The position numbers and the translations under genes were made by a program. DNA of 64,000 nucleotides from Xestospongia bergquistia (lineage: Eukaryota > Porifera > Demospongiae > Haplosclerida > Petrosiidae), in assembly GCA_963965975.1 (NCBI GenBank), contig OZ014424.1, positions 1,488,001 through 1,552,000 of the forward strand, written 5' to 3'. Below, piece by piece: positions 1,389 through 64,000 of this stretch; the first letter of the stretch is position 1; each line of letters begins with the position of its first letter. The notes under the pieces were generated by a model. That model made no database searches and was not told where the DNA came from. It worked only from the letters and a program-made list of their open reading frames with translations.

Positions 1389-2030
1389 ATGGCTAGACAA
1401 GTGCTGTTTGATCGTTTTATGTCAGCTAAATACCTTGAAAAAAGTAGCCATGTTCAATGGAACTGCGAGCATGTACTTCAAGATGACATGCATCTCTTTA
1501 TTCGACGTGACAGGACTGATTTTGAACGTATCTTTCGATATAAGCTTGCTGACAAACAAGGAGAATATATTTCAGTTGAAGATCTTGAAATATCACTAGA
1601 GGTTGGACTGGAATACACTGGAACACAAATTCATAAAGATCCAATTTTGTTTACAGTGGCCAGTGATGATTGGGCTATAGGCATTCAGTTACGTGATTTA
1701 ACTGAATATACTACTTTGGGACCATATATTGGTTACGAAGGAAAACCTGGTCGTGTATTGAGTCAACATGGACCAACTTTGGATAAAGAATTAGCTACAA
1801 ATCCACATTGGCCACGATACTTTCGTATGACATTCAAACCTCTTGAAAAAGTGGCAGTTTGCCGAACCCCAATTGATGATGGTCACCTGTTGACTGTGGT
1901 GTACGACAAACACAATCCCATTGTTGATGTAACTAAAAGTGATTTGTACCTTGATGTGTACCGCTTTAATGATTTTGAGAATTACATTATCAACTACATT
2001 AAAGCCACTGTTACTATCCACACACGTTAA
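1389..2030 (+). CDS. Uncharacterised 213-aa protein, copy A
   Basis: An uninterrupted 213-codon frame begins at the ATG at 1389 and ends at TAA. I do not recognise the family. The protein is soluble-looking, with no signal peptide or membrane segment. It has a charged start and a beta-rich middle and end (motifs GPYIGYEGKPGRVLSQHG, RYFRMTFKPLEKVAVC, LYLDVYRFNDFENY) that would suit a beta-sandwich fold; that is inference. A polypyrimidine tract with TTTCAG at 1343-1348, just before the start, may be the acceptor of a 5' UTR intron, and a TATATATAAAG motif lies about 340 bp upstream. A nearly identical copy is at 7021-7662 and a broken third at 15146-15690. The few differences between A and B are mostly conservative or silent (Q/R, I/V, D/E, K/R, H/Q), which supports real coding function. 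Confidence 0.75.
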   Translation: MARQVLFDRFMSAKYLEKSSHVQWNCEHVLQDDMHLFIRRDRTDFERIFRYKLADKQGEYISVEDLEISLEVGLEYTGTQIHKDPILFTVASDDWAIGIQLRDLTEYTTLGPYIGYEGKPGRVLSQHGPTLDKELATNPHWPRYFRMTFKPLEKVAVCRTPIDDGHLLTVVYDKHNPIVDVTKSDLYLDVYRFNDFENYIINYIKATVTIHTR

Positions 2031-2538: not shown

Positions 2539-3593
2539 AAGTAAAGGACAAAGGCTTTTTCTTTATGTGATCAGTGAAGTAAACCAATACAACCTGTTGA
2601 TGGTTCTAAGAAATATTCTGTCATCGTCAATGTGGTTTATTCAATAAATGACTTCATTATTGATAAGATAGACAATAATGGTATTAACAGATAGTCATTG
2701 TATTACATGATATGACATAATATATTGCATATGTGTTTTTCTTCATTGCATGTTTATTTGTAAAAAGCTAACAATCATACTCTTTCTTATGTATATATAT
2801 AACATAAGATACTCTATATTGTTTCATATATGTTTAGGTTAGACATAGTTCATTCATGTGATATTTAATGTATCTGTACTCTATATAGTCTAGCCACATG
2901 TATGTTTGAGACGTTCTCCTATAACAAGTTTATTGATTAATACAATTATGGTGAGTTACAACAGATTTCTTTGCTGTGAGGAAAGCACATTTTGGTCTAT
3001 ATTATTGAAGTCAATGCATGGAGTTTGTCAAGTAAGAAATAGCCACATAGTTTATCCAGAGAACTCACAGTAAAGAATGTCTATATTATACTCAACATAA
3101 TATATGGATATAATCAAAATGATTTCTTGGAGTAACTTATCTAGGCTTCTTACAATATACAATTTAACTTTGACTTCATAAGAATCCATGCATCATGCAA
3201 AGGTTTAGGATTATTCTAAGAATCTTGCCCTTACATACGTATACAAGTATAGAGGAAGCCTAGCCTTTGAACTTGACTTCAAGTTTGAGATCATTAAATA
3301 GATTTAGACCATATTAGAGATAAAATTAAAATTCCTGGAAATATTAACAAAACGTAATATCCTGTCTTTATTTAAATGAAGCAATTTATCAAGTGTTGTG
3401 AAATCAATGTATTATGTCATATCATGTAATACAATGACTATCTGTTAATAACATTATTGTCTATCCTATCAATAATGAAGTCATTTATTGAATAAACAAC
3501 ATTGAGGATGACAAAACATTTCTTAGAACCATCAACAGGTTGTATTGGTTTACTACACTGATCACATAAACAAAGAGCCTTTGTCCTTTACTT
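2539..3593. repeat. Long-TIR element, copy 2 (complete)
   Basis: The left arm (about 2539-2727) and right arm (about 3405-3593) are inverted copies of each other over about 189 bp with few mismatches; the outer ends read AAGTAAAGGACAAAGGC and its complement. The middle (about 2728-3404) matches the middle of the other copies. This is the only copy in the window with both arms complete. No protein is encoded. Confidence 0.8.
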
Positions 3594-4010
3594 GACCAGT
3601 ACCATTAATAGAATGACGCACACATATGACATGTCTAATTGTTTTGCAGTACTTGCTATTATATATAAAGCTGCTCTGACACTGATTTATATTCTGTGAA
3701 ATGGGAATAAAGTTTAGTTTAAGTTTTTGTGATAGTGATTTTTTGATTCAATGTTTAAAGATGTTTTTCACAAGAAATGGCTTATCTTTGGTGATGTCTC
3801 ATTCATATAATGTATATGTTGGTTATGTAATAATTGAAACAATTAAGACATCATTGAGTCCAATTATAAAAGTTTACTCATAATCCACATAACATGAGAC
3901 TTGAGTTACTGCTGTGATGAGTTATGTGTAGAGATAGAGCCCTCACTACTAGCAAAACAGGATTTTTTCACAAGTCTATGACTGCACATTAAGCAAATCT
4001 AGAGTAAATA
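3594..4010 (+). other. Unit 2 flank with the 213-aa gene body deleted
   Basis: Bases 3594-3675 match the region upstream of the 213-aa gene (compare 976-1062: CACATATGACATGTCTAATT and the TATATATAAAG box). At about 3675 the sequence jumps straight into the 3' cassette (ATTTATATTCTGTGAAATGG, as at 2211). The gene body of about 1.15 kb is absent. The joint falls at a short shared TG, as in a simple deletion. Confidence 0.75.
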
Positions 4011-4887
4011 AAGCCATCTGCATAGGCAGGAGGTTTGTTAATTGAAATGTCTAGATTCATTTATTTAAAAAAGGTTTACTCAATAACTTTGAAGTTTTAT
4101 AACTCATAACTAAACTCACCACTGTTAATTTTGTCAATACCTATATACAAAGAAGGGCAGTTTGCCGAAAATAGTGATTGAATTTGTGATGAAATTGGGC
4201 TATGAATGCTTCTTTATATATAGTTTTTACTACTGTAGGGAATGTCATGTCAAAGTACGTTCCTCTGTAACTCTTAATAAAGTATAGTTACTTCACTTAT
4301 TATAATTGTAGTGAGAAGTATATAGTATAATTTGAGGTCTTCTGCTTTGTAAGTGGTACTAGCCTGTCCTAATATAAAGGGAAATTATAAATGAGTCACT
4401 TTAGACATTTATTTACCTCTAACTAAAATGTCCCTTCTTATTACTTACTTTATCACATCATTAGTGCATTATTCAAGTTCTATCATTTAGACCCAGCAGA
4501 ATCATAAAACTGAGAATTTAAAGTATTAAATGAAGGTTGCTGTAGCAACATCAACTAAGACAACTTGCTAATCATTGTGTTAATCTGTCGCGAATACATG
4601 AGATTAAAATCCACTATGAATATTTATGTCACAGGAGTAATGCTGAATGTAATGTCATGCATACTGTTAAATACAACAATTCAATCATATAGAGAGTTTC
4701 TTGAGTAGTCCAGGAGACACGAGTAAATCTCACATTATAAGACTAATACACTCTGACACACTAAGCTCCTCATAAAATCAATGCAATGATGTAACATAAA
4801 GCTTCCCAAAAGGGGAGGTTTTGTAGAATATTTATTTACATTCTATACATGTTGTTTATGATGTTATCATTGATTGTAATCATTACT
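4011..4887. other. Intergenic; duplicated non-coding block
   Basis: No gene seen. Bases about 4065-4330 match 16155-16430 (shared GAAGGGCAGTTTGCCGAAAA and TGGGCTATGAATGCTTCTTT), showing that the flank of the 213-aa gene unit was duplicated together with it. The rest is AT-rich single-copy sequence. Confidence 0.55.
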
Positions 4888-4945
4888 TAGTAGGAAATGT
4901 CAAATTAGGTTTTCAAGCTGTTACAGGTAGCAAGACAACAGTTTG
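4888..4945 (+). pseudogene. Relic of the eIF2-beta C-terminal coding end
   Basis: The bases near 4888-4930 translate to VGNVKLGFQAVTGS, matching [13 protein letters not shown] at the end of the eIF2-beta copy at 12246-12394. The similarity continues through the 3' flank to about 5080 (compare 12420-12540, including CTCTTTTATTATATAGTACT). The zinc-ribbon cysteines and all upstream exons are missing, so this is a dead duplicated tail. Confidence 0.7.
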
Positions 4946-7020: not shown

Positions 7021-7662
7021 ATGGCTAGACAAGTGCTGTTTGATCGTTTTATGTCAGCTAAATACCTTGAAAAAAGTAGCCATGTTCAATGGAACTGCGA
7101 GCATGTACTTCAAGATGACATGCATCTCTTTATTCGACGTGACAGGACTGATTTTGAACGTATCTTTCGATATAAGCTTGCTGACAAACGAGGAGAATAT
7201 GTTTCAGTTGAAGATCTTGAAATATCACTAGAGGTTGGACTGGAATACACAGGAACACAAATTCATAAAGATCCAATTTTGTTTACAGTGGCCAGTGATG
7301 AATGGGCTATAGGCATTCAGCTACGTGATTTAACTGAATATACTACTTTAGGACCATATATTGGTTACGAAGGAAAACCTGGTCGCGTATTGAGTCAACA
7401 TGGACCAACTTTGGATAGAGAATTAGCTACAAATCCACATTGGCCACGATACTTTCGTATGACATTCAAACCTCTTGAAAAAGTGGCAGTTTGTCGAACC
7501 CCAATTGATGATGGTCACCTGTTGACTGTGGTGTACGATAAACACAATCCCATTGTTGATGTAACTAAAAGCGATTTGTACCTTGATGTGTACCGCTTTA
7601 ATGATTTTGAGAATTACATTATCAACTACATTAAAGCCACTGTTACTATCCAAACACGTTAA
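7021..7662 (+). CDS. Uncharacterised 213-aa protein, copy B
   Basis: Full-length paralog of the gene at 1389-2030, same length and same start, with about 375 bp of near-identical upstream DNA that includes the TTTCAG tract just before the ATG and the TATATATAAAG box near 6680. I count only seven amino-acid differences, all mild. Function unknown; no signal peptide, membrane segment or catalytic motif is visible. A recent tandem duplicate kept intact; whether the pair is held by selection or is simply young cannot be told here. Confidence 0.75.
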   Translation: MARQVLFDRFMSAKYLEKSSHVQWNCEHVLQDDMHLFIRRDRTDFERIFRYKLADKRGEYVSVEDLEISLEVGLEYTGTQIHKDPILFTVASDEWAIGIQLRDLTEYTTLGPYIGYEGKPGRVLSQHGPTLDRELATNPHWPRYFRMTFKPLEKVAVCRTPIDDGHLLTVVYDKHNPIVDVTKSDLYLDVYRFNDFENYIINYIKATVTIQTR

Positions 7663-45809: not shown

Positions 45810-48571
45810 ATGTATCGAGTTTGGTGTGTTCTCAGGTAAGATAAAAGCATTAGTCTTTCTCTATTGTTACAGTTACAGCCTTAGAGTCTGTAATTAAATC
45901 GAGAAAGAAAGGTCATATTTCTATATCTTCCTCTCTCATTATTGTCATGCTGTTCTTAATAGGCAATCCTCTTCGATTTTGAGGAGCACTGTTACAGTGT
46001 CAGGCTCTCCTCGCTTTCTTTCAACCTATACTTCTATCAATGTGGACGCATTAAGTCCTCGAATAAAGCAATTCGTGGAAGAAAACGCTAAGATTTGTCA
46101 ACCAGATAATATCTATGTGTGTGATGGCAGTAATGAGGAGAATACAAAGCTAATTGAGAAATTACAACAAGATGGACGGTTAGACAAGCTAACAAAATAT
46201 GACAACTGGTAAGTCTTCTGTTTATATAAGCATTACTAATGCTGCCATTTTGAAACCCAACACTATAACCACCCTCCCTCTCTAGTTATTTAGCCAGAAC
46301 ATCAAAGGAAGATGTGGCGCGTGTTGAAAAACAAACATACATATGCTCAGAAAAGGTAGAAGATGCAGTCCCCATTCCTAAATCTGGAAATCACGAAGAC
46401 TCGAGATTAGGACACTGGAAACCGCCCAGTGAAATGGATAAGGAGTTATCAGAGAAGTTCACAGGATGTATGAAAGGTAATATGATTTTGACATCACTCC
46501 ATAGTTCTTTGTACACATATTGACAACAAAAGAGGTATCAGTAACTGTGAATTATTAGTAGGCCAATTCTGTTGCCTAGTGATACAACATGAAACTACAA
46601 GAAGTCCTATTTGTGCAATTAACTAAAACTAGGTGTTGAATTTTCGGCATGTATGCCTATTTAATGATACAATAGGCCCACATTGTACAAGTCCTATGAT
46701 ACAATAGGCCCACATTGCACAAGTCCTATGATACAATAGGCCCACATTGTACAAGTCCTATTGTGTATTGCCTATGTAATAGGAACCTGCTTTCTTTCAC
46801 AAACCTATCTCTCATTCCCTTAGGACGTACTATGTACATTATTCCTTTCAGTATGGGACCAGTTGGTTCACCTCTCTCCAAATATGGTATTCAACTGACA
46901 GACTCTGAGTATGTAGTCGCCAGTATGAGAATCATGACAAGAATGGGGAAAGAAGTGCTTGATACTTTAGGCAATGACGAGTTTGTCAAATGTCTTCACT
47001 CTGTCGGGGCTCCTATTTTACCAGGAAAAGAAGACACACACTGGCCGTGCAATCCTAAAAACATTGCAATTGCTCATTTTCCCGAGAGGAATGAAATCAA
47101 ATCTTTTGGCAGTGGTTATGGTGGGAACTCTCTACTTGGAAAGAAATGCTTTGCTTTGAGAATAGCTACCATTTTAGCTCGTAGAGAAGGATGGTTAGCT
47201 GAACATATGTTGGTAAGGAATAGTAGATACCGCTAGTACGTGTACTAATTGATGTAATAATAGCTATATTAAATAATATTCACTATTCTAGAGCTTATTA
47301 TTGGTAGCTATCCTAGGTTACTATGCTACTAGCCTCATTAGCTTGGTCATTGCTCTATTACCTGACTAAATGTAGCTTGACAAGGTTACTCTATGATTGG
47401 TATTGAGGCTCACATGTATAGCATGCTTTGATCACATGGCTCTATTTATATTAGTACAACTATTTATTTGTAGATTCTTGGTCTCACTAATCCTGAGGGT
47501 AGAAAGAAGTACATAGCTGCTGCTTTTCCTAGTCAATGTGGCAAGACCAATCTGGCTATGATCACTCCTACATTACCAGGATGGAAAGCTGAGTGTGTTG
47601 GTGATGACATTGCTTGGATGAGATTTGGAGCTGATGGAAAGTTGCGTGCTATTAATCCAGAAAATGGGTTCTTTGGTGTAGCACCTGGAACTAATACAAG
47701 TTCTAATCCCAACGCCATGGGCACTATATTTAAGGACACTATTTTTACCAATGTTGCTAGTACCAGTGATGGAGGTGCTTACTGGAAAGGTCTGGAGGAT
47801 GAGACTCCTGATGGTGTCTCCATTACATCATGGCTGAATGAAGAAAACTGGCAAGACCTCTCTGATGAGGAGAAAAAGAAGAGACCAGCTGCTCATCCTA
47901 ACTCGCGTTTCTGTGCCCCTGCAGGGAATTGTCCAATTATTGATCCCAGATGGGAAGATCCTGAAGGAGTACCCATTGATGCTATTTTGTTTGGTGGGCG
48001 TCGGCCAACAACTGTTCCCTTAGTCTTTGAATCCTTCAATTGGCAACACGGAGTCTTTGTAGGAGCATCAATGCGTTCAAAGGCCACCTCTGCTGCTGAA
48101 CATACTGGAGATGAAGTCATGCATGACCCGTTTGCTATGAGACCATTTTATGGTTACAGTTTTGCTCAGTACATGGCTCATTGGCTGAGTCTTCAACAAC
48201 GTCCTGGTGTTCAACTACCAAAGATCTTCCATGTTAACTGGTTCCGTCAGAGTCCTACTGATGGATCTTTTATATGGCCTGGTTTTGGTGAAAACTGTCG
48301 AGTCTTGGACTGGATCTTCCGACGCTGTGACAATGAAGATATTGCTCAGCCATCACCTCTTGGGTTGATTCCTAAACCAGGTACCTTAAATATCACAGGT
48401 CTTAATATGAAAGATGCTGATATTGCTGCTCTGTTTGACACTTCCAAAGAGGAATTGGAAAAAGAAGCAAAAGGAATTGAAGAGTATTTCAACGATCAAC
48501 TACCTGGTCAGGTACCAGGACCAGTAGAAGATGAGCTGGCTGCTTTAAAAGCTAGGATTGCTAAATTATGA
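45810..48571 (+). CDS. Phosphoenolpyruvate carboxykinase (GTP), probably mitochondrial, 649 aa
   Basis: Five exons keep phase: 45810-45835, 45963-46208, 46286-46476, 46824-47212, 47474-48571. The enzyme converts oxaloacetate and GTP to phosphoenolpyruvate, CO2 and GDP. Visible blocks: [40 protein letters not shown], the P-loop [43 protein letters not shown], and [20 protein letters not shown]. The short first exon plus the start of exon 2 encode a basic, Ser/Arg-rich leader ([19 protein letters not shown]) typical of a mitochondrial presequence. The protein ends in AKL. The intron before exon 4 holds a 32-bp repeat. It is followed by a tandem paralog without the leader. Length and motifs fit the GTP-type family. 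Confidence 0.93.
46665..46762. repeat. 32-bp tandem repeat (3 units) in a PEPCK intron
   Basis: TGATACAATAGGCCCACATT occurs at 46665, 46697 and 46729. Intronic; no apparent function. Confidence 0.9.
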
Positions 48572-49438
48572 GATGTGTAGAATAATTTTTGCTTCTATAA
48601 AATTTTTATATGTTGTTATAATCTCTTATGACATCACACATCTTATTTATTTATTTGTTAGTTTATTCTTTAATTTTTACATTTACGACCTTTATTAATA
48701 ATATTTTAATATTGTTTTAGTCAATGAAGCATAGCGTAGTGTTACTAAACGGGTGGTCATGATGATAATGAAAGATTAAGAGTAATTAACTATATGTATG
48801 TTATTATTGTATAATACATCTTCATTATTGATGATAAATTACACTTTAATCTCTACTAAAAGACTAAAATTGAGGAAAAATGAAAAAATTAAGACTAAAT
48901 TCACAAGAGACTAAAAGTATTGACTCAAGTTTGTGACTGAATAGAGACAACCAAACAAAATAGATGACAAAATTGAAGCTAAATTCAAAAAGTTACTAAA
49001 AGTTAATAATAATTGACTATAAATTAATGACAGACTAAAATTTAACAATAATTGAAAGAAAGCAGTCAAAAACTGAGAAGAAATGTACCACTGTTTAACA
49101 TGGACATGATAGCATTAAAGTTTTAAACAAAGACAGACGACTCTCTATCTCATGCATCTATTATATATGAACATAATTAGTCTAATGTTGTCAAACACTT
49201 CCCCATTTCGCCTCCTCAAATTAATGAGCTTTGTATAACTCCTCCTTTCTTACAGGGAATGAGTGGGCCTGGCTGCACGAGGCCACAAATAGTAATTAAT
49301 CCAACTCACGAGAGGTCATAGCTCAGGACAAAGTACTAATAAGCGCTAACGCTCATTCATAAAGAGACTGTGAACGAGAGAAGTTTGTGTATCTTACTGC
49401 CTATTAATTGATAATTGTACTCGATTTTCAATAGCACT
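48572..49438. other. Intergenic between the PEPCK paralogs
   Basis: AT-rich with degenerate GACTAAAATT words (48850-49060). The promoter and 5' UTR of the second PEPCK must lie near its right end. Confidence 0.5.
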
Positions 49439-51655
49439 ATGACAACAGCCTCTCCTCGCTTTATGTCGGCCCATTCCTCTATCAGCGTGGACTCCTTGAG
49501 TCCTCGTATAAAGCAATTCGTAGAAGACAACGCTAAGATTTGTCAACCAGACAATATCTATGTGTGTGATGGTAGCGAGGAAGAGAATGCCATGCTGATT
49601 GAGAAACTACAGCAAGATGGACGGCTGGAAGAACTAACGAAATACGACAACTGGTAAGACTTCGACGCATCATTGGTGTGCACTGCTATTAATTTCCCTT
49701 TCTTCCTCTAGCTATCTAGCAAGGACATCAAAGGAAGATGTGGCACGTGTGGAAAAGCAAACGTACATCTGTTCAGAAAAGGTGGAAGATGCCGTCCCCA
49801 TCCCTAAATCTGGAAATCATGAAGACTCAAAGTTGGGACACTGGAAGGAACCCACTGCAATGGATAAAGAGTTATCAGAGAGGTTCACTGGATGTATGAA
49901 AGGTAATAGAACACTTTAATACATACAGTAATTGTATAGAGACATTTTTCGTAAAAATTCACTTGACTACACCCACTTAGCATCCAACTCTCTTCTCTTT
50001 CTCTCTCTCTCTTTCAGGTCGTACTATGTACATAATTCCTTTCAGTATGGGACCAGTGGGTTCACCTCTTTCCAAATATGGTATTCAACTGACAGACTCT
50101 GAGTATGTGGTTGCATGCACGAGAATCATGACAAGAATGGGGAAAAAGATACTGGATACTATAGGCAATGATGAGTTTGTCAAATGTCTTCACTCTGTTG
50201 GAGTGCCCATTGTACCAGGAAAGGAAGATCCACACTGGCCATGCAATCCTAAAAAGATTGAAATTGCTCATTTTCCAGAGAGAAACGAAATCAAATCTTA
50301 TGGCAGTGGTTATGGTGGCAACTCTCTTCTCGGAAAAAAGTGCTTTGCTTTGAGAATAGCTACCATTTTAGCTCGTAGAGAAGGATGGTTGGCTGAGCAT
50401 ATGTTGGTAAGTCAAGCAGATACATGAACATAATTTGGTTTAAGTACACCACCCTCTAAACCCAACTGATTGTATATACTGTGGTTATGCTGTTAATACA
50501 TGAACCATAACGACCTTGACTTACACTAACTATGAATGTAATTATTTTTATTTATAGATTCTTGGTCTCACTAATCCTGAGGGCAAAAAGAAGTACATAG
50601 CTGCTGCTTTTCCTAGTCAATGTGGCAAGACCAATCTGGCTATGATCACTCCTACATTACCAGGATGGAAAGCTGAGTGTGTTGGTGACGACATTGCTTG
50701 GATGAGATTTGGAGCTGATGGAAAGTTGCGTGCTATTAATCCAGAAAATGGGTTCTTTGGTGTAGCACCTGGAACTAATGGAAGTTCAAATCCCAATGCC
50801 ATAAAAACTATATTTAAGGACACTATTTTTACCAATGTTGCTAGTACCAGTGATGGAGGTGCTTACTGGAAAGGTCTGGAGGATGAGACTCCTGATGGTG
50901 TCTCCATTACATCATGGCTGAATGAAGAAAACTGGCAAGACCTCTCTGATGAGGAGAAAAAGAAGAGACCAGCTGCTCATCCTAATGCTCGCTTTTGTGC
51001 CCCTGCCAAGAATTGTCCTATTATTGATCCCAAATGGGAAGACCCTGAAGGAGTACCCATTGATGCTATATTGTTTGGTGGACGTCGGCCAACAACTATT
51101 CCCCTCGTATTTGAGACCTTTAACTGGCAGCATGGAGTCTTTGTAGGGGCATCAATGCGTTCAAAGGCCACCTCTGCTGCTGAGCATACTGGAAATCAAG
51201 TGATGTACGATCCATTTGCTATGAGACCATTTTATGGTTACAGTTTTGCTCAATACATGGCTCATTGGCTAAGTCTTCAGCAACGCCCTGGTGTCCAACT
51301 ACCAAAGATCTTCCATGTTAACTGGTTCCGTCAGAGTCCTACTGATGGATCTTTTATATGGCCTGGTTTTGGTGAAAACTGTCGAGTCTTGGACTGGATC
51401 TTCCGACGCTGTGACAATGAAGACATTGCTCAGCCATCACCTCTTGGGTTGATTCCTAAACCAGGTACCTTAAATATTTCGGGTCTTGATATGAAAGATG
51501 CTGATATTGCTGCTCTATTTGAGATGTCAAAAGAGGGACTGGAAAAAGAAGCTAAAGAAATTGAAGAGTATTTCAATGATCAGCTACCTGGTCAGGTACC
51601 AGCACCTGTAGAAGAAGAGTTGGCTGCTTTCAAAGCCAGGATTGCTAAATTATGA
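49439..51655 (+). CDS. Phosphoenolpyruvate carboxykinase (GTP), probably cytosolic, 630 aa
   Basis: Four exons keep phase: 49439-49653, 49712-49902, 50018-50406, 50558-51655. Same catalytic blocks as its neighbour ([33 protein letters not shown]). The start is the ATG at 49439 ([14 protein letters not shown]): an in-frame TAA lies 27 bp upstream, and the bases matching the neighbour's exon 2 presequence are non-coding here. With no presequence it is probably cytosolic. The large last exon is nearly identical to that of the first copy at the DNA level while the introns are unrelated. The protein ends in AKL. Its 3' end converges on the HSPA12-kinase gene, 293 bp away, and a piece of this 3' end is duplicated at 55885. 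Confidence 0.93.
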
Positions 51656-51948: not shown

Positions 51949-54900
51949 TTATGTACTGTATTTATCTAAAAGCTCAATAACTTGTTTTATTGTTGGGCGA
52001 TTATCAGGATCTTTCTTAATACAAGAGATAATTAATTCATAAAGAGGTGGAGCTCTAGAACGAACATGTTGAAGCATCTCTTGGAAAACAGAAGAATCAG
52101 GAAAACGACAGGTCATTATTTCACAAAGAAGAACACCATAGCTATAAATATCCATTTTAGTTGTTAGAGCCTTTTGAACATCAATTAGGTTTGGAATAGA
52201 CTCAGGGGCACTATATATAAAGGCACCTGTACCACGAGTAACTGCTTGACAAGCTTTATTAGCAGAGCCAAAGTCAGATATCTTAGTCTTCCATTTATGA
52301 CGACCTTTAGATTCTAGGAGGACATTGGCACTACTCACGTCACGATGTATGATAGGATCAGGTAGACAATGTAAGTAGTTTAGACCTACTGCTACATCAC
52401 GTATTATAGTCAACAAGACATACTCACAGGTTGGATCAGGGGTGAGTTGTTTGGTCTCATAAGCATTACGTAATGATGTATCCATAATCTCAGTAATAAT
52501 CATAGGATTACCAGATGGATCATCTAATACAGCACCAATAAACTGGAGAAGATTAGGATGACGTAACTGAGCCATTGTGTTGATCTCACGATGTAATAAT
52601 TTAAGATTATCTGGATTCATTATAATTTGATACATCTGTTTCACAGCTACTCTTTGCTCTCTAAATATACCAACCCATATCACACCCCAACCACCTCTTC
52701 CTAGCTCTTCTTTAGTGATAATGATATCTTTATGACTCACTTTCCAGCTGTTTTTTATAGAAGTAATCTTTCTTTGTAGGACTTCCATTTCTTCTTGCTT
52801 AGTTTCAAGTTCTTTTTGAATTTGCTCTAATATCACATTTTGTTGTTGATAATCTAGTAACTGTTGTTGGTGGTCTTCCTGTAATTGGGAGAGGTCTTTT
52901 TCTTGCTGCTCATAAATCTCTTGTAGTTTAGAATACTCATTTCGTTGCTGTTCTATTTCCTGTTGGAGAGCCTTGTGGATATGAGAAGATTCTTCTTGTT
53001 GCTGTTGGTAGTCTTCTTGCAACTGGGAAAGCTCTTCTTGTTGCTGTTGGTAGTCTTCTTGCAACTGGGAAAGCTCTTCTTGTTGCTTTTGGTGGTCTTC
53101 TTGCAACTGGGAAAGCTCTTCTTGTTGCTGTTGGTGGTCTTCTTGCAACTGGAAAAGCTCTTCTTGTTGCTGTTGGTAGTCTTCTTGCAACTGGAAAAGC
53201 TCTTCTTGTTGCTGTTGGTGGTCTTCTTGCAACTGGGAAAGCTCTTCTTGTTGCTGTTGGTAGTCTTCTTGCAACTGGAAAAGCTCTTCTTGTTGCTTTT
53301 GGTGGTTTTCTTGCAACTGGGAAAGCTCTTTTTGTTGCTGCTGATAAATCTCTCGTAGTTGAGAATATTCATTTTGTTGCAGTTCTATTATTTCCTGTTG
53401 GTGAGTCTTTTGGAAACAAAATTCTCGTTGCTGTTGATAGCCTTCTTGCAACTGGGAAAGCCCTTCTTGTTGCTGTTGGTGACTCTCTTGTAGGAATTCA
53501 TATTGAAGTTGAGAGTAACTTTTTAGCTGCTGTTGGCAAATCACTTGTAACTCCTTCTGATGTATGATGTCAGGATCTAAATATTTTACAGCACCCTTAG
53601 CTGCAGCTAATAAAGAATCATTTGGTACAATAACACGAATGTTGTACTCACTAAACTTAGCTTTACAGAGAGAGACAATTTTCTGATAAACATATTTTGA
53701 ACTACCGAAATCACCAACAAGATAAATGGCATCAATGTCTCCTTTACGTCGATCAAGAACTGAAGCTATACAGCAAAGTATACCATCAACAGCGGGCTGG
53801 AATAATTCACAAACTAAAGGATATTTTATATAAAGTGTAGAATCCTCAAGTTCAATGCGAGGATCTTGAAGTGCTGCAACACCTTTATGTATTTCTTCAA
53901 GGCCATAAAAACTAACAAATTGATATGGCAAGTCAACCAAAATCTCTTCATATTCCAAGGTCTCATATTCTCTTGGGAGAGGATCCAAGCCACATGCTAA
54001 ACTTGCAAAGGTGAGCTTTTGCACTTCAAAATCTTTTCTGAGTATTGTATTGATCTCAGCTCTTCTAGTTGCTAGAGTTCCTGGATCCTTAGTAGCTAAG
54101 AATCGACAAAAACCACTGTTGGCATCATTTGATGTGTCCTTGACAATCTTCTGCAGTAATCTCAAAAACTCTTTGTTTACGTTCACATCACCACAATCAT
54201 TACCAGTTGGTTCAACTGTGATTTCATTATATTTGTGTGAAGTGATATCTATAGCATCTTCTCCAGTGTCAACAACCAGATAGCAATTAGATTTCAATGA
54301 GCCATCAACTTGACAGTACTCAGGAACATCCTGTGGTCTCATTGTTTGACAGTACATAGGGACAGCTTCTGCATTAAGGACTATAGTTAGTTTGTCTGGA
54401 TGAAATTGATGAGGATGAGGTATACCATGTCCTATCTCAATCAAACAGTTACTACTCTCTTGACTAGGTGAGCACAGTCCAGCCTAAAATTATAGGAAAA
54501 GGAAATTCAATTGTTCTGTCATAACAACCATGAACTGTCATAACATTACCCTGTAAGCTGCCTCTCTCATTATGTATTTCCCTCTTGAACTCCATTTTAC
54601 TGGTATAGTAATGACCCAGTCAAAATCGTCTGCTGTTAGTTCATATTCGTTTAGGTGAAAGTGATATTCCAACTCTTTCCTCAAATACTTGAGAATGAAA
54701 GCAATCACTCCAACTAAATAGAACTCTCTTCCATTTGATGCTTTTATAACCATACTGCTGTTGACATTCTAAAATGAATTACATTTACAATATTATAGAG
54801 CTTATTATTATTTTTTTGTGAATATTAACATTCCACTATTATATGTGGCAAAACACAGGAATATGAATTAACTAAGCATGTTAATTGTATCTATTAAATT

Positions 54901-55815
54901 CGCATTTTTGGATGTGTATTAATTTTAGTAATTATTGACCTATAAACATTCAACTTAATTTTTCTTCATGAAATTACCCTTTTTTATTTACAAATTTTAG
55001 TGATTATTACAACAGTCACTAAAGTCACTAATATTATTAATTATAGGCTTAAGGTAAAGTAGTTTTGCCATTCAATTTATTGTTCATAGATAATATATTA
55101 GCCAAGATATGTGAAGGAACACTTAGAGGTCATTTCAAAAGAGCAGCATGTTGTGAATGGGTGTGGTAATAGGCCCTAGATCTTAAATATTAAAAATTGA
55201 GGTGCATTCTTTCAGGATGACCTGCAGTCATAACCATTCTTTGACATGAAGTCAAAACTAAACAGCTCTTCACTATACACATGATCAATATGAAATTTAT
55301 TCATACATGCCCACTTTCTTATTATTAATAGATGAATATAAATATAGAATTAATAGTCTACTGTATATGGTGGAACATAGGCAGAAACTTAATACACCTA
55401 ATGAATTATCAGTTGAGCATACCTCATCATTATGTAAATTTAATTCAAAGTAAAGAAATTTTGGGTGATCAGCAGGTTTAAGCTTGTGATACCGGGCTTG
55501 TGCTTCATATCCAAAGGAGTCCACTTTATAAGTTGAAGATGTTTCAACAGGATCATCTTTGTAAATATATTGAAAGTGTCTATCAATGTCTTCAGTCTCT
55601 TTTAATAAAATAGTTGTTGGGACTATAACGTGATACACGTTTAGTCTCAAAATTGCAATCTCACGATCTGTCACTGTCCTGTACGCCACAGAGCAAAATG
55701 TCCTTCCAAAAGCAATGGAAGCCACGTTGCCAGTCCTTTTGCGGAATCGCTCAATAACTGTGAATACTGTGGTGGACAAAGGAAGACGTTTTTCATTTTG
55801 TCCTCTTGAGCTCAT
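51949..55815 (-). CDS. HSPA12-like ATPase / coiled coil / TKL kinase fusion, 1048 aa
   Basis: Three minus-strand exons keep phase: 55423-55815, 54550-54768, 51949-54483 (3147 nt). Residues 1-510 look like an HSP70-type actin-fold ATPase of the HSPA12 kind: ASIAFGRTFCSVAYR (phosphate-1 loop, degenerate), CYLVVDTGEDAIDI (phosphate-2, degenerate), AIYLVGDFGSSKYVYQKI (adenosine loop), then VIVPNDSLLAAAKGAVKY. Residues about 515-775 are a Gln/Glu-rich coiled coil with a 14-residue repeat. Residues 790-1048 are a complete protein kinase: GRGGWGVIW, VAVK (Lys 819), HRDVSSANVLL (Asp 919), SDFGSANK (Asp 941), SAPES. Its sequence is of the tyrosine-kinase-like type. All catalytic residues are present. 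The ATPase part may be a folding or ligand sensor and the coiled coil an oligomeriser; that is inference. No membrane segment. Confidence 0.85.
52985..53335. repeat. 42-bp coding minisatellite, ~8 units
   Basis: On the plus strand units of CTCTTCTTGTTGCTGTTGGT plus 22 more bases repeat every 42 bp, with a few variant positions (GGTAG/GGTGG, GGGAAAG/GGAAAAG). They encode EELSQLQEDYQQQQ on the minus strand, within the coiled coil of the HSPA12-kinase protein. Confidence 0.9.
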
Positions 55816-56214: not shown

Positions 56215-59200
56215 TTATGTACTGTATTTATCTAAAAGCTCAATAACTTGTTTTATTGTTGGGCGGTTATCAGGATCTTTCTTAATACAAGAAAGAATTA
56301 ATTCATGAAGAAATGGAGCTCTAGAACGAACATGTTGAAGCATCTCTTGGAAAACAGGAGGATCAGGAAAACGACAAGTCATTATTTCACAAAGAAGAAC
56401 ACCATAGCTATGGACATCCACTTTTGTTGTTAGCGCATTTTGGACATGTACATGTACACTTGGTATAGACTCAGGAGCACTATATACAAAAGCACCTGTA
56501 CCACGAGTAACTGCTTGACGAGCTTTATTAGCAGAGCCAAAGTCAGAGATCTTAGTCTTCCATTTATGAGGACCTTTAGATTCTAGGAGGACATTGGCAC
56601 TACTCACATCACGATGTATAATAGGATCAGGTAGACAATGTAAGTAGTTTAGACCTACTGCTACATCACGCATTATAGTCAACAAGACAGGTTCACAGGT
56701 TGGATCAGGGGTGAGTTGTTTGGTCTCATAAGCATTACGTAATGATGTATCCATTATCTCAGTAATAATCATAGGATTACCAGATGGATCATCTAATACA
56801 GCACCAATAAACTGGAGAAGATTAGGATGACGTAACTGAGCCATTGTGTTGATCTCACGATGTAATAATTCAAGATTATCTGGATTCATTATAATTTGAT
56901 ACATCTGTTTCACAGCTACTTTCTGTTCTCTAAATATACCAACCCATATCACACCCCAACCACCTCTTCCTAGCTCTTCTTTAGTGATAATGACATCTTT
57001 ATGACCTACTTTCCAGCTGTCTTCCATTGCACTAATCCTCTTTTGTAGACCATCCATTTCTTCTTGTTTTGCTTGAAGTTCTTCTTGAATTTGCTGTTCA
57101 AGCTGACGGTTTATTTCTTGTTGGTGGTGGTGATTTTCTTGTAGCTGGAAATGTTCAATTTGAAGCTGAGAGTAATTTAATTGCTGTTGGTGGTGAGCCT
57201 CTTCTAGTTGAGAAAGTCTTTCTTGTTGCTGAGAGTACCTTGTTAGATGCTGTTGGTGAGTCTTTTGTAGTTGAATGTGTTCTTTCTTTTGTTGTTGATG
57301 AGTCTTCTCTAACTGATGGTACTTGTCCTGTAATCTACTTATTGCTTGTGTCATGGTTACTTCCTTTTTCTTTTTATCCACTTCCAATTGGTTCATCTCT
57401 GCCAGAAGCTGAGCATTCATCTCTTTCTGTTTATTAAAAAGCTCCCATAACTCACTGTAGTCACTACTACCCTTAAAATATGCTGCATTACTCAAGTCAT
57501 CTGTTAATACTGGTTTAGAATCAAACTGTACAGCTATCTGCTGTGATAGACACTGCACAACAGCTTGCTTTTCAATATGGAGAAGTATTTTCTCTCCTAG
57601 AGGTACTGACTGAGAAGACTGACAGAGCTGAAACAAACAGAAAGTTATGCAATATATATCACAGTGACATAATAATACACAAGTTGTACAGTAACTGTTG
57701 TACGACATGTATATTTATTAAAAATTGACCATTAATTGGGTTGAGTTTGAGCATGAATGAATTTCATTTGGTGTGGTGATACCAGCAGTACATTCTCTTC
57801 CTACCTGAGTGATAGTGCCTGCTTTATCAAGCAAGTTATTAATATCAGAAGTCAAATTGTCCAGTAGTGTCAAGAAATACAAGTGGCTTAAAGGTTGCTG
57901 CATTAAATGTTTCTAAAGAGAGAGAAATGAATTTGATTGGAATAAGTACTATTACAATGTACCATAGATTGGTGGGTGTCTTGATCATTCATTGAACTAT
58001 CATTAGACAACACAGCTGCAACATGTAAGCGAGCCTAAAACAACACAACACAATGATAATGTAACTAGAATGTGTTTGTCATTTTAGTATATAATACCTA
58101 GTCTATTTGATCAATCAGTGTTTGTTGTTTCATTTCAATAAACACTGATTACTAATAACTATATAAGTTTGCTTTAATTTGGTATCATTCAGTTCATTAT
58201 TAGTATCTGTCTTTAGCTCCATACTACTTTCTGTTAGTAATAAATCTATACTTACCTCAGGATTGTACATAAGAAGGGGTCCTGCTCCTTGTACTGACTC
58301 ATCACTTTGTTGATCACAGCGACCAAGAAGACGTGAGAGAAACACTTTAAAAACATGTATTGTAACACAGCCATCTGGTATATCAGTGTCTACATGTGAT
58401 CTGTAGTTAGCAGAGGCTAAAAAGCTGGAACTAAAGTCAACTTTGTCCATACACCATTTTTGCTGGGTATTGGCTAATTTGAGAAACCAGTCTTGGTCTA
58501 CTGTACAATATGTAGGCCTATATGAAGAAATTGATAGATGGACAATGGTCAAATTGATATAAAACATACTTATATAGAGAGAAGAAATGTGAAAAAAGAC
58601 CCTCGAGAATTTTTCTTAACAGCTCCATATCAGAATCACTAGACGCCTTAATTACTTCATTAATGACAGTAGCACACTCACACAGATGAGGGAGGGTATT
58701 TTTGTCTTGTAACTAATAAACAGACCAGTACATGAATGAGATGGAATATGGACAGCACAAAAGTATATACATGTATTCACTAAAAATTTAATTTCTCAAG
58801 TATGTATGTCTTCCAAGCATCAAGACAAAGAGACAGACAAACTGACAGACTTTACCTTTAAATCAATTGTGATGTATTTGGAAAGCAGAGAGGTAGTGAC
58901 TCCAGGAACTCTGATGAAGACATCTTCTAGTGCCAGAGGAGAATTATAGATGAATAGAAATGTGCTGTGCATTATATTGAATTTGGCTTCTTCGTCAAAA
59001 GGTAAAGGAGCACTATAAAGGTGAGTTTTAAGAGCTGTCTTTGTCATGATTTGAAGATATGCCTGGTACCAATCTTGTAGAATCTTAGAGTTCAAACCTT
59101 GAGGAACAAAGGTAGACAGACAGTCATAGACAGAGAAAACTTACAAGTTCCTTCACTTGACTCAACAGCACCAACTAAAACAGAGAACATAGCTGAGATA

Positions 59201-62200
59201 AAAAATGTACTCAGTAGCTTTTGTTCATCATGGTTTATCTGTTGTATAGGAACAAACAAGTCACTTGGTAGGGATTGGTCTGCTTGGGAAACAGAACTAG
59301 GATCACCATCAGCTATCTGCAACCTCTCCAAAGGACCGAGGATGGAAGACAGGTTAACTAAGCTCTGTTTGTTGTATTCCATACAAATATGCAAAAATAC
59401 AAGTCGCTGAATGGGAGGTAATTGATGGAGATTTAAAAAGGTGTGCATAAACTGATACAAGGGAAAGGAAGTTCCCACGTCCAATTTGAGACAATGATAA
59501 ATGAAGTCTGTAAAATATCTCTTCCATAATTCATCAGGATATTTTAAAAGGTGCTGAAATCCTATATATACTGGATTCTTTGAGGGGACACCATTCTACA
59601 GATCAATAGACCAACATAAGTTAATTTGCAAGGTCAATGTGGTAGATGGCAATAAATATTATAAATATGTATATTTACAAGTAGATATGTGTAAAATAGT
59701 GATTAATTATTTTGCTTATTATAAGCACAAAAGGAATGTGGCAAGGGAACAATATAGTGATTATTTCTTTAAATAAAAGCACTAAAGGAATGTATCAAAA
59801 GGGGCAATGTAAAAAATATGATAAATGTGCCTAGGTAGTGCCTTTTTACACATGAACTGATGACATTTTGTAACCCATTCAGTCAACGTACTTTCAATTT
59901 CTGCTCCACAATTGATATAACAGCTAAACCTCTCATTAAACCTTCAGAATCAACTAGTAAGTAAGGATGCAGACTTGAGCTTTCTTGAACATTTTTGATC
60001 TCTTTAGCTTCTTTAATGAGTTTCTCTGCTTCATCATATACCAAACTATTGACAATAAAGTAATGCAGTGACTATCACAGGTCATACACACTTACTTAAA
60101 GAAAGGAAAATGAGGTTGGTAATCCTTAGATCTTGGTGGAGACAAACTGCTAGCAAGAGTCTTCAATTGTGTAAGTTTAGGTGTAGGAAAACTCTCTAAT
60201 AACGATAAAAAGAGCTCTTCAATGACATCAGTACAGTTGACAGAAAATAAGATATCAAGGTTATAGTTCTCATTGATTAAGGATAACATGACAATCATAA
60301 AGTCAGTAAATGTAGACTGGAACATAGTCATGACACTGTCTGTGACATTGAGACCAGACTCGTGAGAATGAGTAAATGCAACTACACTTTTTAGGTGTTC
60401 TATCATCACTGGAGTATCCCAACAGGCCTTAAAAAGCTGACATAACTTTGTTCCTACTCCTTTAGCATCAAGTAACTCTAATAGCTTTGCATTTCGTTCA
60501 GCTGCTTCCATTGGCCTCATGAAAGGACCAGTGGATTGAGAACCATAGATCACACGAGAGGCAATATCTGGAATAATTTCACCTAGTAAATGTTGGCAAG
60601 CATTAATGAAGTTATCATGAGGAAAATCTAAAGAAAGAATTAAGGATATTAAACTGTCTATCCATCAATCTGCTGTTCAAATTACCTTTATTAGGAAGGA
60701 AACAATAACAAAACCATTCTACAACATCCAGACTTCCAGGATGCAGAATGTGACTCTGACCAATTGCATCCAGATAATGGTGACTCCACCCATGTAAGAA
60801 AATTGAAGGGTAACAAGCATCAAAAAACATAGCTGGAGGAAAATGTAACATAATTACAAAAAGTTTATTAGAGGTGGATAGATCTTGAGTTTCTGCCTCT
60901 TCAATCATTGATCTAAGGTGATTAATCATATTTTTTGTAGTATTCTGTGAAAGTGAGTAGAGTGACATTAAATCATAATATTCCATATATATATATATGT
61001 ACCTTCATGTTTGCCATTATAAATAAAATCTTTTTAGTGGTAGAACATACAAAAGTCTTCAATAATTCCTGCACTTCGCTTTGAGACTGGAGAGCAGAAA
61101 GGTTGCATAGAATAACTTTTTGAGGATCAGAAAACACAAGTTCATTAACATAAGTAAGATCCATCTCTTGAGATTGTTTGATGAGTTGCAATGAAAGTTC
61201 ATCAACGAGAGGAGAGGATCGTGTGAAGAGGATAAGCTTATTAGCAGTATCACTGTGAAAGAGAAACGATTGACATTCCTCAATAAATTAAAGTCATTGT
61301 TCAGCTTACCCTTGTTGAGATTGCAAGGCTCTAACTTGCAGGGAGAGTAGTTTCTTAATACTGAAGTGTTGTTGATAAGTCAGATAATTATCAATATAAA
61401 CTGCCGGAATATGTTCATGATAAACAATAATTGCCTTAGTTGTCATCAACTGCATTAACTGTTTAGTCATATGATGTACTAACCACTGCTCCATGAGGTC
61501 CATAACAAGATTAATTTCTGGAGATATTTGAGTTGGTATTGTGGATTCTCTGTGAGAGGTGTGCAAAATTTGTAGCATTTTGGGAAGAGCTTGGTGAACA
61601 GAGTCGATTGTGAGAGTTTGGTAGGCTTCACTAAAAGAAGTGTCACGACAGAGAAGATGGAACAAGTATTCAGAGTCCATTTTGAGTTCTTCAATAGTAT
61701 ACTGTGGTGGAAATAGAATAATTACAATGACCAGTAGCATATATTAGTCTCTCATTACTCTAGTACTTTTGTTAATGTGCATGTACATGTAGAATACAAT
61801 ATTTGGAAACATATCACAAATAAGGTATCCTAACTATATATACTTACCACAGGTACAGTAAAACCAAATGAATGTTTTAATAATCTCAACAGCTTATATA
61901 ACAAATACACTCCAACATTATCTCCAACTACTTCCTCAGGTGTTGTATCTTGGTAATGATGAGCATTAGGAGGTGCATTAGGAGGCAAAAGAGAGAGAAG
62001 TAAAGAGTCCAGTGTCTCATCCTGCAATCCATAGAGACTAGTATTACCATCAACAGAGTTAATAAATTGCTCCACCTGTTTTATTAATACACAAAAATGT
62101 GAATGATATGTACAGTGTAATATAATTTTAACAAGATTGTACCTTAGTTCGAGCTATTGTTAACAAGCCTCTTATACAAGGTGACAAATTATTCATAGCA

Positions 62201-64000
62201 GTTGCCAACAGGGTCTTGTGACTAATGTAATATTTCTCAAACCTGTTCAGACAGGGGGCTGGTGTACCTTCTATTTCACTCAGTCGTATAACCCCAACAC
62301 ATTGGAAATTACTGTGAACATGACATGGCTTTAAACGAGTACCTACAGCAATGTTGGCATAGCAATAAGGGTTGGTATTGCCAATCTGTCGAAATTGCTT
62401 ATTAAAGAGATTGTAAAGACACTCATATATATCTGTACTCGATTGACATATGACAACAGTATGACCTTCACTAGCAGAATGGCAGACAGCATCTATGATG
62501 TTAGCCTATGCAAGAAAAGTGACGTGTACATATATAAATGAGCATTCATTTCAATTAATTACCACTTGCTGCTGTCCATCTCCCAAGAAATTAGAGCATG
62601 TATATACTCTAGTATTTTTTCTGTCTAAGATACCAAATACCATTAATAAATGAACTATGCTATTGTCCTCCGACGAATCAATAATTAGTTTGTATCGGAC
62701 TTCATTCACACCACCTCCATGCTGTGGTTGGTCAGAAAGAGATTTATGTAAAACTTGAAGAATACTTTGCTTATTGACGTTACTAAGGGAAACAAGTTTA
62801 TTTCCTACTGTTGATATCTGGAGGAAGAGAGAGAGAGAAAGTTATAAATACAAAACCATGCAGTTAGCTTCTTTACCTTTCTTAAGAACATTTCACACAG
62901 CCACTCAAAAGATTCTTCCTCTCTTGGCAAAGCCCAGTATATTCCATTAAAATTCCTCTCTAGACCTTCCATTATGAGCTGAGGAGTCAATGTTTCTGTT
63001 CTTCTACATCTCAAATAATTAATGAAGTATATAAAATCACGTAACCCAAAGAACTTCCTCATTTTTTCATTTTTCATCAATTCAGTATATACAAGACAAA
63101 GCTGGACAATATTATCTAAGTCCTTCTTGAGTTCTGGAGGAGGGTGTTTTGGAATTTCACAGAAACATTCTTTGGCTAGAATCTTTAAATTGTCAATAGA
63201 GATCTCAGGTTGAAACAAAGTAACAGCACAGTTAGTTATAGCAGCATCAAGTATACGATTAGTGATAATTACAAAGGACACTTCTTGTTTATCTAAATAA
63301 TACTGAATAACTTTAAGAGATTCTTCAGCCAATTCTGCTTTGTTCATAAATACTACACTGTAAACTGGTAAAGAAAATTTGGAGTAGCTTTGTTGGCGGT
63401 TGATTGCACGGGAAAACACCAGTTGAATTTCATTGGATGTTGTTTGTCGTGAGCACTGATAAACATGGGAGTCTAAACTTTTGAATAAATTCATATTTCT
63501 AAACAGAGGCATTTTAGACTTAGGACCCTTTAGATTGGCCATTACCAAATTAAATGATAGTGTTTTTGAAGTACCAGGTGGTCCTACAATAATCAATGGA
63601 GTGTGTGTCACAGTACAAACTATAGTGGCCAATAAATTCTCTTTTAGGGCCTGTGTTTTTGCAATACCTGGAGGCAATTCAATGTTGCTACAAAACCAGT
63701 CTAGTTCAGGGAAGAAAGCTTGAGAGAAATTAACCTCATGACGTAAACAATATTTATTGTCTAAGACCTTGCAATACTCCTCACGACACTTGCTACCCAA
63801 CCTCATATAGTATACAATACCAAGAGACACCATAATTGCACGTCTATTGTAATCCTTTCTATTACCATGCTGTTTCTGTACTTCATACAGGGACATTAAC
63901 CATTGATAGAATGTGAAGACACGTTCAATATCTCTCAGACCAACACAGCTCTGAGAATATACCTCAATCTCCTCAGGTTTCATCCCCAGATTAGAAAGCT
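56215..64000 (-). CDS. RNF213-like AAA+ / coiled coil / TKL kinase fusion, 5'-partial (2081 aa seen)
   Basis: Sixteen minus-strand exons keep phase: 62877-64000 (runs off the edge), 62563-62817, 62143-62505, 61848-62075, 61310-61701, 61003-61252, 60686-60944, 60096-60627, 59892-60045, 59145-59595, 58856-59097, 58570-58712, 58256-58517, 57963-58034, 57805-57912, 56215-57627. The first exons follow RNF213 (mysterin) order: SCVGLRDIERVFTFYQWL, Walker A IIVGPPGTSKTLSF, VYQCSRQTTSNEIQLVFSRA, FFGLRDFIYFINYL, ERNFNGIYW, then TVVICQSSTDIYECLYNLFN and PAPCLNRFEKYYI. Long helical exons follow. No RING or RZ cysteine cluster is visible. The last exon carries a Gln-rich coiled coil and a full kinase (GRGGWGVIW, VAVK, HRDVSSANVLL, SDFGSANK, SAPES). 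RNF213 is a cytosolic antimicrobial ubiquitin ligase and ATPase in vertebrates; here output may be phosphorylation. Confidence 0.82.

What the first reader, a model, noticed from the sequence alone, without database searches (positions are those of the whole stretch)
56215..64000. RNF213-like AAA+ protein ending in a protein kinase instead of a RING/RZ ligase
Sixteen phase-consistent exons link an RNF213-type AAA+ core to a coiled coil and an intact TKL kinase. I looked for the RING (C3HC4) and RZ finger cysteines in all visible exons and found none. RNF213 senses intracellular microbes and lipids in vertebrates. A version wired to phosphorylation would be a new sensor-kinase layout, possibly an innate immune receptor. 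The joint between exons is inferred from splice phase, not from transcripts.
Basis: partly seen in the sequence, partly recalled or inferred. Interest (0 to 1): 0.92.

Follow-up and report, generated by a model that had tools for sequence, protein, structure and literature searches.

The report
RNF213-like AAA+ protein with kinase tail
A sponge gene joins the giant ATP-sensing ring of the immune protein RNF213 to a protein kinase, and the same genome shows that such a join happened more than once, suggesting the ring can be re-wired from ubiquitin tagging to phosphorylation.

Summary
An independent gene model gives the same 16 in-frame exons, and the gene continues upstream. The join is in the genome itself: the last exon opens with about 44 residues of RNF213-type sequence, 75% identical to a kinase-less paralogue with the same intron, and runs unbroken into coiled coil and kinase. 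Three other database entries carry the same join. One correction: the kinase did not displace a RING or RZ finger. The gene belongs to a branch of the RNF213 family in which neither was found; the kinase replaced that branch's C-terminal tail. Also found: a second, separate fusion (C2 array, five copies, other breakpoint, different kinase); two genes joining only the N-arm to coil-kinase; and loss of the AAA4 Walker B acidic pair in all six kinase-bearing copies, while seven close copies without a detected kinase keep it. Most likely a phosphorylating, ATP-binding AAA ring without ligase activity. Transcripts and activity are untested.

The parts
62877..64000 (-). exon (continues to 64064 beyond the window): AAA4 ATPase unit, RNF213 type
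   Evidence: model; phmmer to RNF213 structures E 2.5e-23; 79% identical to paralogue par79
63561..63584 (-). AAA4 Walker A, GPPGTSKT, intact
   Evidence: sequence; alignment
63339..63356 (-). AAA4 Walker B position, VVFMNK instead of VVFMDE: acidic pair lost
62563..62817 (-). exon after AAA4
62143..62505 (-). exon with the RNF213-type stretch YANIAVGTRLKPCHVHSNF..NRFEKYY
61848..62075 (-). exon
61310..61701 (-). exon
61003..61252 (-). exon
60686..60944 (-). exon
60096..60627 (-). exon, region after the AAA core (hinge side, by alignment)
59892..60045 (-). exon
   Evidence: only 21 of 51 residues align to par79
59145..59595 (-). exon
58856..59097 (-). exon (acceptor CAAG)
58570..58712 (-). exon, near where a RING would sit by interpolation only; no Cys/His pattern
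58256..58517 (-). exon
57963..58034 (-). short exon (weakest part of the model; shorter than its counterpart in par79; not compared)
57805..57912 (-). exon ending ..TITQ before the last intron; same intron place and phase in par79
56215..57627 (-). last exon: RNF213-type start, coiled coil, kinase and stop in one open frame
   Evidence: same join in P0002, P0003, P0004
57496..57627 (-). RNF213-type start of the last exon (LCQSSQSVPLGEKILLHIEKQA..KPVLTDD); the matching par79 exon ends here (KPVITQD, then gtaagt)
   Evidence: 75% identity over 44 aligned positions, E 1.4e-12
57010..57453 (-). kinase-gene-derived linker and Gln-rich coiled coil (borders approximate; coil judged from sequence)
   Evidence: similar to kinase proteins P0007-P0009, P0013
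56236..56985 (-). protein kinase domain, TKL-like, catalytic motifs intact
51949..55815 (-). neighbour gene: first part resembles an HSPA12/HSP70-type ATPase (recalled; no Pfam hit), then coiled coil and a kinase 92.8% identical in DNA to the focal kinase
   Evidence: Pfam silent on the HSP part

Best explanation
The gene encodes one giant protein: RNF213-type N-arm, AAA ring, hinge and part of the following region, then a coiled coil and a TKL-like kinase. Shown: the join exists in the genome in one exon; no RING or RZ is found in it or in its branch; the gene ends in the kinase and so lacks the C-terminal domain through which RNF213 binds its E2; AAA3 keeps Walker A and B; AAA4 keeps Walker A but has lost the Walker B acidic pair; the kinase keeps its catalytic residues. 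Inferred: it has no ubiquitin ligase activity; the ring still binds ATP and changes shape or oligomerises; the coiled coil brings kinase domains together so that they phosphorylate each other and downstream targets. It would thus work like RNF213 as a nucleotide-gated switch, with phosphorylation as the output. A role in sensing microbes or stress is a further, weaker inference.
For: Same 16 exons by an independent model. Last exon starts with RNF213-type sequence shared with the kinase-less paralogue, same intron position. Same join in other database entries: P0002 99%, P0003 and P0004 73% identical. Purifying selection: 1871 codons, no stops, dN/dS 0.22 against par79; kinase dN 0.038-0.127, dS 0.122-0.287 against three neighbour kinases. 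RNF213 kinship: phmmer; profile alignment of the branch E 3e-136 for the AAA core, 3.7e-21 N-arm/linker, 1.5e-7 hinge, 1.5e-8 CTD. A second, separate fusion in the same genome. In mouse RNF213 ATP binding at AAA3/AAA4 drives the output; Walker A mutants have much reduced activity and Walker B mutants do not (PMC12075652, passages). This fits rings that keep Walker A and lose Walker B.
Against: No transcript, protein or activity data. The focal AAA4 evolves much faster than its paralogue's (tree end branches 0.30 against 0.0012), so Walker B loss may be relaxed constraint rather than a new function. In the C2 kinase copies four of five also change the AAA4 Walker A threonine to Met or Ile, so AAA4 there may bind nothing. 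One C2 kinase copy is broken. The stretch from RING slot to RZ does not align to RNF213 at all (prob 0.1%), so a very altered zinc site cannot be formally excluded, though no Cys/His pattern exists. None of the 64 long homologues listed carries a kinase Pfam (1800 candidates scored, capped), so the layout is narrow in distribution.
Confidence: 0.7

Rival explanations
1. Two products from one locus: a truncated RNF213-like protein and a separate coil-kinase made from an internal promoter or start codon in the last exon.
For: The first in-frame ATG of the last exon lies after the RNF213-type start; related coil-kinases occur as smaller open frames elsewhere in the genome.
Against: The exon has a splice acceptor at the same place as in the kinase-less paralogue and opens with RNF213-type residues under constraint (dN 0.119, dS 1.23 over the short piece of about 41 codons), also in P0003 and P0004.
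Confidence: 0.12
2. Decaying gene: the fusions are by-products of tandem duplication and gene conversion, and the AAA part is losing function.
For: Walker B losses, fast focal AAA4 branch, one broken C2 copy, dN/dS of 0.24-0.83 over the three parts of the C2 last exons.
Against: No stop in 1871 focal codons, dN/dS 0.22; four of five C2 last exons are open over RNF213 part, coil and kinase; AAA3 Walker A kept in 4 of 4 readable C2 kinase copies.
Confidence: 0.13
3. Assembly error joining two genes.
For: The locus is a tandem array with similar kinases.
Against: P0002, 99% identical with a few differences, lies on a contig of another length, hence another record; P0003 and P0004 have the same join; C2 shows the same kind of join five times.
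Confidence: 0.02

Closest known systems
RNF213 (mysterin), vertebrate E3 ubiquitin ligase
   Same: N-arm/linker, dynein-like AAA ring with AAA3/AAA4 motifs, hinge
   Different: No RING, no RZ finger, no C-terminal E2-binding domain; AAA4 Walker B lost; ends in coiled coil and kinase
RING-less RNF213-like proteins of other sponges and protists (e.g. Oscarella P0133; P0137 and P0123, taken for Sycon and Ephydatia from recalled name prefixes)
   Same: Same branch of the tree; 40% identity to P0123 over the searched region
   Different: No kinase Pfam listed; several have SAM domains listed (at the end of P0133, 4855-4916)
TKL kinases of the TNNI3K/CTR1 kind
   Same: Nearest solved kinase sequences, E 6.7e-22 and 3.2e-21
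   Different: No RNF213-type AAA ring in those proteins (recalled)
Plant tandem-kinase fusion resistance proteins (e.g. wheat Lr9)
   Same: Kinase joined to another module in an immune setting (search listing and start of abstract only)
   Different: No AAA ring (recalled); no homology claimed

Membership tests
RNF213 E3 ligase | Dynein-like AAA core of RNF213 type | tested here: met
   phmmer E 2.5e-23; AAA core profile alignment of its branch prob 100, E 3e-136; tree
RNF213 E3 ligase | Catalytic AAA3 (Walker A and B) | tested here: met
   GDIGVGKT and VFLDEVNTSSC
RNF213 E3 ligase | Catalytic AAA4 (Walker A and B) | tested here: not met
   Walker A kept, Walker B VVFMNK
RNF213 E3 ligase | RING finger | tested here: not met
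   No pattern in six frames of 20 kb or in the spliced model; no RING Pfam hit in the 16 open frames
RNF213 E3 ligase | RZ finger (PF20173) | tested here: not met
   9 matches in the genome, none near the gene; no Pfam hit; no pattern
RNF213 E3 ligase | E2-binding C-terminal domain | tested here: not met
   The gene stops after the kinase; the domain is detectable in relatives with deep profiles, prob 95.5, E 1.5e-8, weakly with a smaller set, 44.5%
RNF213 E3 ligase | Ubiquitin ligase activity | not testable with these tools
   needs purified protein
TKL-like protein kinase | Kinase domain with K, HRD, DFG, APE motifs | tested here: met
TKL-like protein kinase | Phosphotransfer activity | not testable with these tools
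   needs assay
Innate immune receptor | Response to microbes or microbial ligands | not testable with these tools
   no expression or infection data; inference only

The most novel reading that the evidence does not exclude
In this sponge lineage the RNF213-type ring is an exchangeable sensor platform. Its output end was swapped for a coiled coil and kinase at least twice and perhaps three times at different breakpoints (after the N-arm, right after the AAA core, and further on), and each full-ring fusion came with conversion of the ring from an ATP-hydrolysing to an ATP-binding-only switch (AAA4 Walker B lost in both lines, AAA3 Walker B glutamate lost as well in the C2 line). This would be an animal sensor-kinase class built on an AAA ring.
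Probability: 0.4. Interest if true: 0.9.

Novelty: new variant of a known kind. Interest (0 to 1): 0.77.

Why it matters
RNF213 is a broad antimicrobial factor and the moyamoya disease gene, and how its ATP-binding ring controls its output is still being worked out. Natural versions in which a separately evolved kinase replaces the ligase end would separate ring from output: if ATP binding also gates the kinase, the ring is a general switch. Kinase-bearing and kinase-less close paralogues in one genome make that testable. The RING-less branch, found in sponges, rotifers and amoebae in one search, also bears on how the ligase activity arose.

Tried and rejected
Rejected: 'kinase in place of the RING'. 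The kinase-less paralogue shows no RING or RZ pattern in six frames of 12.5 kb, and 56 of 64 listed homologues show no RING pattern. The patterns are not perfect: RZ was found in 7 of the 9 homologues that Pfam marks with it.

Rejected as unsafe: exact breakpoints in vertebrate numbering. A first profile alignment gave focal end ~ seal residue 4251, C2 end ~ 3464 and N-arm genes ~ 1535, but cut into pieces the stretch from RING slot to RZ does not align. With the small set even hinge (84%) and CTD (44.5%) were weak. The C2 break, near the end of the well aligned AAA core, is the safest; the others are interpolated.

Weak: the HSPA12-like label of the neighbour gene rests on recall; Pfam gave nothing. 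Weak: the gene model upstream of the window. My finder ran several genes together and missed the AAA3 Walker B exon, which I found in the raw frames; the start codon was not settled. Weak: the first 44 residues of the last exon also align loosely with the start of free kinase proteins P0007, P0008 and P0013 (37-43% over the whole 130-residue piece); I take the 75% match to par79 as the true kinship and the other as carried by the downstream coil.

Led nowhere: paper searches for RNF213 with kinase domain or sponges and on sponge kinases. Structure prediction was not used. The tree is a quick one with long-branch warnings; careful bootstraps were not run. Branch-specific dN/dS was not computed. 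That a C2 copy lacks a kinase was read in sequence for one (L029/L054); for the other five it rests on absence from the capped lists.

Rows dropped: one search gave 93 rows (29 loci and all 64 homologues); L037 was too short to enter; L040 and L041, repeats of L029 and L032, were removed, leaving 91.
Full report
WHAT IS THERE. The window is C14:1488001-1552000 of a 146-Mb genome. I take it for a sponge because close hits are named Amphimedon and Oscarella, and others carry name prefixes that I recall as Ephydatia and Sycon; the record is unnamed. The gene continues upstream to about C14:1562 kb with the RNF213-type N-arm and further AAA units; my model has 4123 residues and its start is not settled. 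The finder missed the small AAA3 Walker B exon, which is present (VFLDEVNTSSC).

RNF213 KINSHIP. phmmer against solved structures gives RNF213 in 9 of 9 sequences at E <= 0.01 (best 2.5e-23). A search for long homologues returned 64 proteins from 1800 scored candidates. The best is P0123 (40% identity over the whole searched region); other sponge entries follow (Oscarella, Oopsacas), then bdelloid rotifers, Pelomyxa and others; vertebrate RNF213s are among the last. Profile alignment of up to 19 members of this branch with up to 11 of the RNF213 clade gives N-arm/linker prob 99.4 (E 3.7e-21), AAA core 100 (3e-136), hinge 93.9 (1.5e-7) and C-terminal domain 95.5 (1.5e-8), but nothing from RING slot onward to RZ (0.1%; break to CTD 6.3%). 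With a smaller set the hinge and CTD matches were weaker (84% and 44.5%). In a quick AAA4 tree of 91 rows, a clade of 18 rows holding all ten rows I labelled RNF213 (nine of them with an RZ Pfam) stands apart from the focal branch with SH-aLRT 100; the program warned of long branches. Three C7 copies of this genome (L038, L039, L042) fall in that RNF213 clade.

NO RING, NO RZ FOUND IN THE BRANCH. A RING pattern occurs in 8 of 64 homologues, all vertebrate. No RING or RZ pattern occurs in six frames of C14:1544001-1564000 or of the paralogue, and Pfam finds none in the 16 open frames of the window part. The genome shows 9 RZ matches over the cut-off. Seven of them lie a few kb downstream of weaker AAA matches on C12 and C15, where true RNF213 genes seem to sit; two on C14 at 4.38-4.40 Mb lie in long open frames (ZNFX1-like, recalled). 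So the kinase did not take the place of a RING. What the focal gene lost is the tail that relatives keep, including the part matching the RNF213 CTD, which binds the E2 UBE2L3 in mouse (PMC12075652, passages), and, in Oscarella P0133, a terminal SAM domain.

THE JOIN IS IN ONE EXON. A paralogue, par79 (C14:405974-418500), is 51-79% identical to the focal gene in the 17 exon pieces compared, 1871 codons, no stops, dN 0.195, dS 0.883 (local alignments). No kinase was seen in the 12.5 kb read. Its exon after the matching intron reads LYRPQSVDLGEKILLHIEKQAIVQCL..KPVITQD and then a donor. The focal last exon starts after the same intron with LCQSSQSVPLGEKILLHIEKQAVVQCL..KPVLTDD (75% identity, E 1.4e-12) and runs on with LSNAAYFKGSSDYSELWELFNKQKEMNAQ, a stretch resembling free kinase proteins (SSRYKEIWELLDKEKEKNAQ in P0007), then coil and kinase to the stop. 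The break therefore lies at the former exon end. P0002 (99%) and P0003 and P0004 (73%) contain the same join; among the 240 proteins listed these three are the only ones with that start. P0004 and P0010, a protein like the kinase exon of the N-arm neighbour, both list a 611158-base contig, which suggests that the neighbourhood is kept too (that it is one contig is inferred from the equal length).

MORE FUSIONS. (1) On C2, one open exon of 544 codons carries RNF213-type sequence, coil and a kinase 38% identical to the focal kinase. Five such last exons lie in the array (9718968, 9742026, 9765369, 9788708 open; 9841948-9843568 broken), each 2.2-3.0 kb after the start of an AAA4 match. A neighbour copy, C2:9811046, runs on in the matching exon into sequence that follows the AAA core in relatives, with no kinase in the 4 kb read (L054). 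In the tree the four C2 kinase copies entered form one group (95) inside the C2 copies, apart from focal plus par79 (99). So the full-ring fusion most likely arose at least twice. The C2-type join was found in P0187-P0191, probably the same species (P0187 is 100% identical). (2) Upstream of the focal gene two genes join the RNF213-type N-arm directly to coil and kinase, without AAA units in the frames read; they may be separate fusions or deletion products of a focal-like gene. (3) The neighbour below (51949-55815) joins an HSPA12-like part (recalled) to coil and kinase. Its kinase is 92.8% identical to the focal one in DNA, gene B's 91.0%, gene C's 81.4%, while P0003/P0004 have the gene-B type of glycine loop, which suggests exchange of kinase sequence within the array.

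WALKER MOTIFS. At AAA4, all five readable kinase-bearing rows have lost the Walker B acidic pair: focal VVFMNK, C2 copies VVFMYN (2) and CVFFNM (2); in the sixth, broken copy that stretch appears to be missing. Seven close copies without a detected kinase keep it: par79 and C2 L027-L032. Among other rows of this genome, L015 and L017-L026 keep DE, L016 reads DI, and three C7 rows read EE; whether these carry kinases was not read in sequence. Among the homologues P0135 has lost the aspartate. At AAA3, the C2 kinase copies read VFLDD (4) or VFLDK (1); 5 of 6 C2 copies without a detected kinase read VFLDE and one was not readable; focal keeps DE. AAA3 Walker A is kept in 4 of 4 readable C2 kinase copies, the AAA4 lysine in 5 of 5, but the following threonine is Met or Ile in 4 of 5. 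Phylogenetically these are two events, so this is a suggestive pattern and not statistics. In mouse RNF213 Walker A mutants of AAA3 or AAA4 have much reduced activity while Walker B mutants do not (PMC12075652, passages).

SELECTION. Kinase of focal against three neighbours: dN 0.038-0.127, dS 0.122-0.287. C2 last exons, six pairs: kinase dN/dS 0.32-0.42, RNF213 part 0.35-0.83, coil 0.24-0.54. AAA4 pieces: 0.37 and 0.54 for two pairs of C2 kinase copies, 0.15-0.40 for four pairs of the others. Constraint is present but looser than in focal against par79 (0.22). Catalytic motifs are intact in focal and C2a; in C2b and C2d the glycine loop reads GKGAYGEV and GNGAYGKV, and C2c has HRDVSSPN and AAPE (read from the printed sequences).

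MECHANISM. Best supported: an RNF213-type ring that binds ATP, without ligase parts, carrying a coiled coil and an apparently active kinase; ring state would control kinase proximity. The architecture is shown at the level of the genome; gating, partners and immune role are inferred. Domain borders of RNF213 are from PMC7311170 (passages): N-arm 1-1290, linker to 1774, AAA 1775-3405, hinge 3406-3588, E3 module 3589-4926 with RING 3940-3999 (mouse).

LITERATURE. Full-text searches of the held library: 'RNF213' + 'protein kinase domain' + 'sponge' 0 papers; 'RNF213' + 'kinase domain' + 'domain architecture' + 'homologs' 0; 'RNF213' + 'sponges' 24, the 10 listed being medical papers on moyamoya, circular RNAs and the like. 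Searches (6 listed; 10 of 515 listed) showed no kinase-bearing RNF213 by title or abstract start; one listed title concerns human RNF213 and Cav-1 phosphorylation (PMC12153744, listing only). Preprints and most subscription papers are not covered.

VERDICT. The finding is real and stronger than stated, with the RING part of the claim corrected. It is a new variant of a known kind (RNF213-type AAA proteins), with repeated, separate kinase fusion as the surprising part.

Noticed in passing
C2:9714423-9843568 (L033-L037, L044, L055-L057): Second RNF213-kinase fusion: tandem array with five coil-kinase last exons, four open and one broken, beside copies without a detected kinase.
   Followed up: yes
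C14:1563464-1580000 (L010-L012), upstream of the window: Two genes joining an RNF213-type N-arm directly to coil and kinase without an AAA unit in the frames read.
   Followed up: partly
window 51949-55815: HSPA12-like (recalled) gene with coil and a kinase almost identical to the focal kinase; suggests kinase exchange within the array.
   Followed up: partly
database hits P0063, P0068, P0070, P0087, P0113, P0117: Similar kinases are listed with many other partners (PF07177, PF02338, PF01302, PDZ; one named RGS), some named Amphimedon, as if this were a mobile C-terminal output module.
   Followed up: no
P0145: A transcriptome protein of the same RNF213-like branch carries a ubiquitin protease domain (PF00443) plus SAM domains, perhaps another output swap.
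   Followed up: no
C12:0.85-0.98 and 2.44 Mb, C15:0.80 Mb: Seven RZ finger matches next to weak AAA matches: likely the true RNF213 orthologues of this genome, in several copies.
   Followed up: no
window 46004-51595, + strand: Two adjacent genes resembling GTP-type PEP carboxykinase (recalled from the translation).
   Followed up: no
window 1389-2030 and 7021-7560, + strand: Nearly identical open frames starting MARQVLFDRFMSAKYLEKSSHVQWN, repeated; nature unknown.
   Followed up: no
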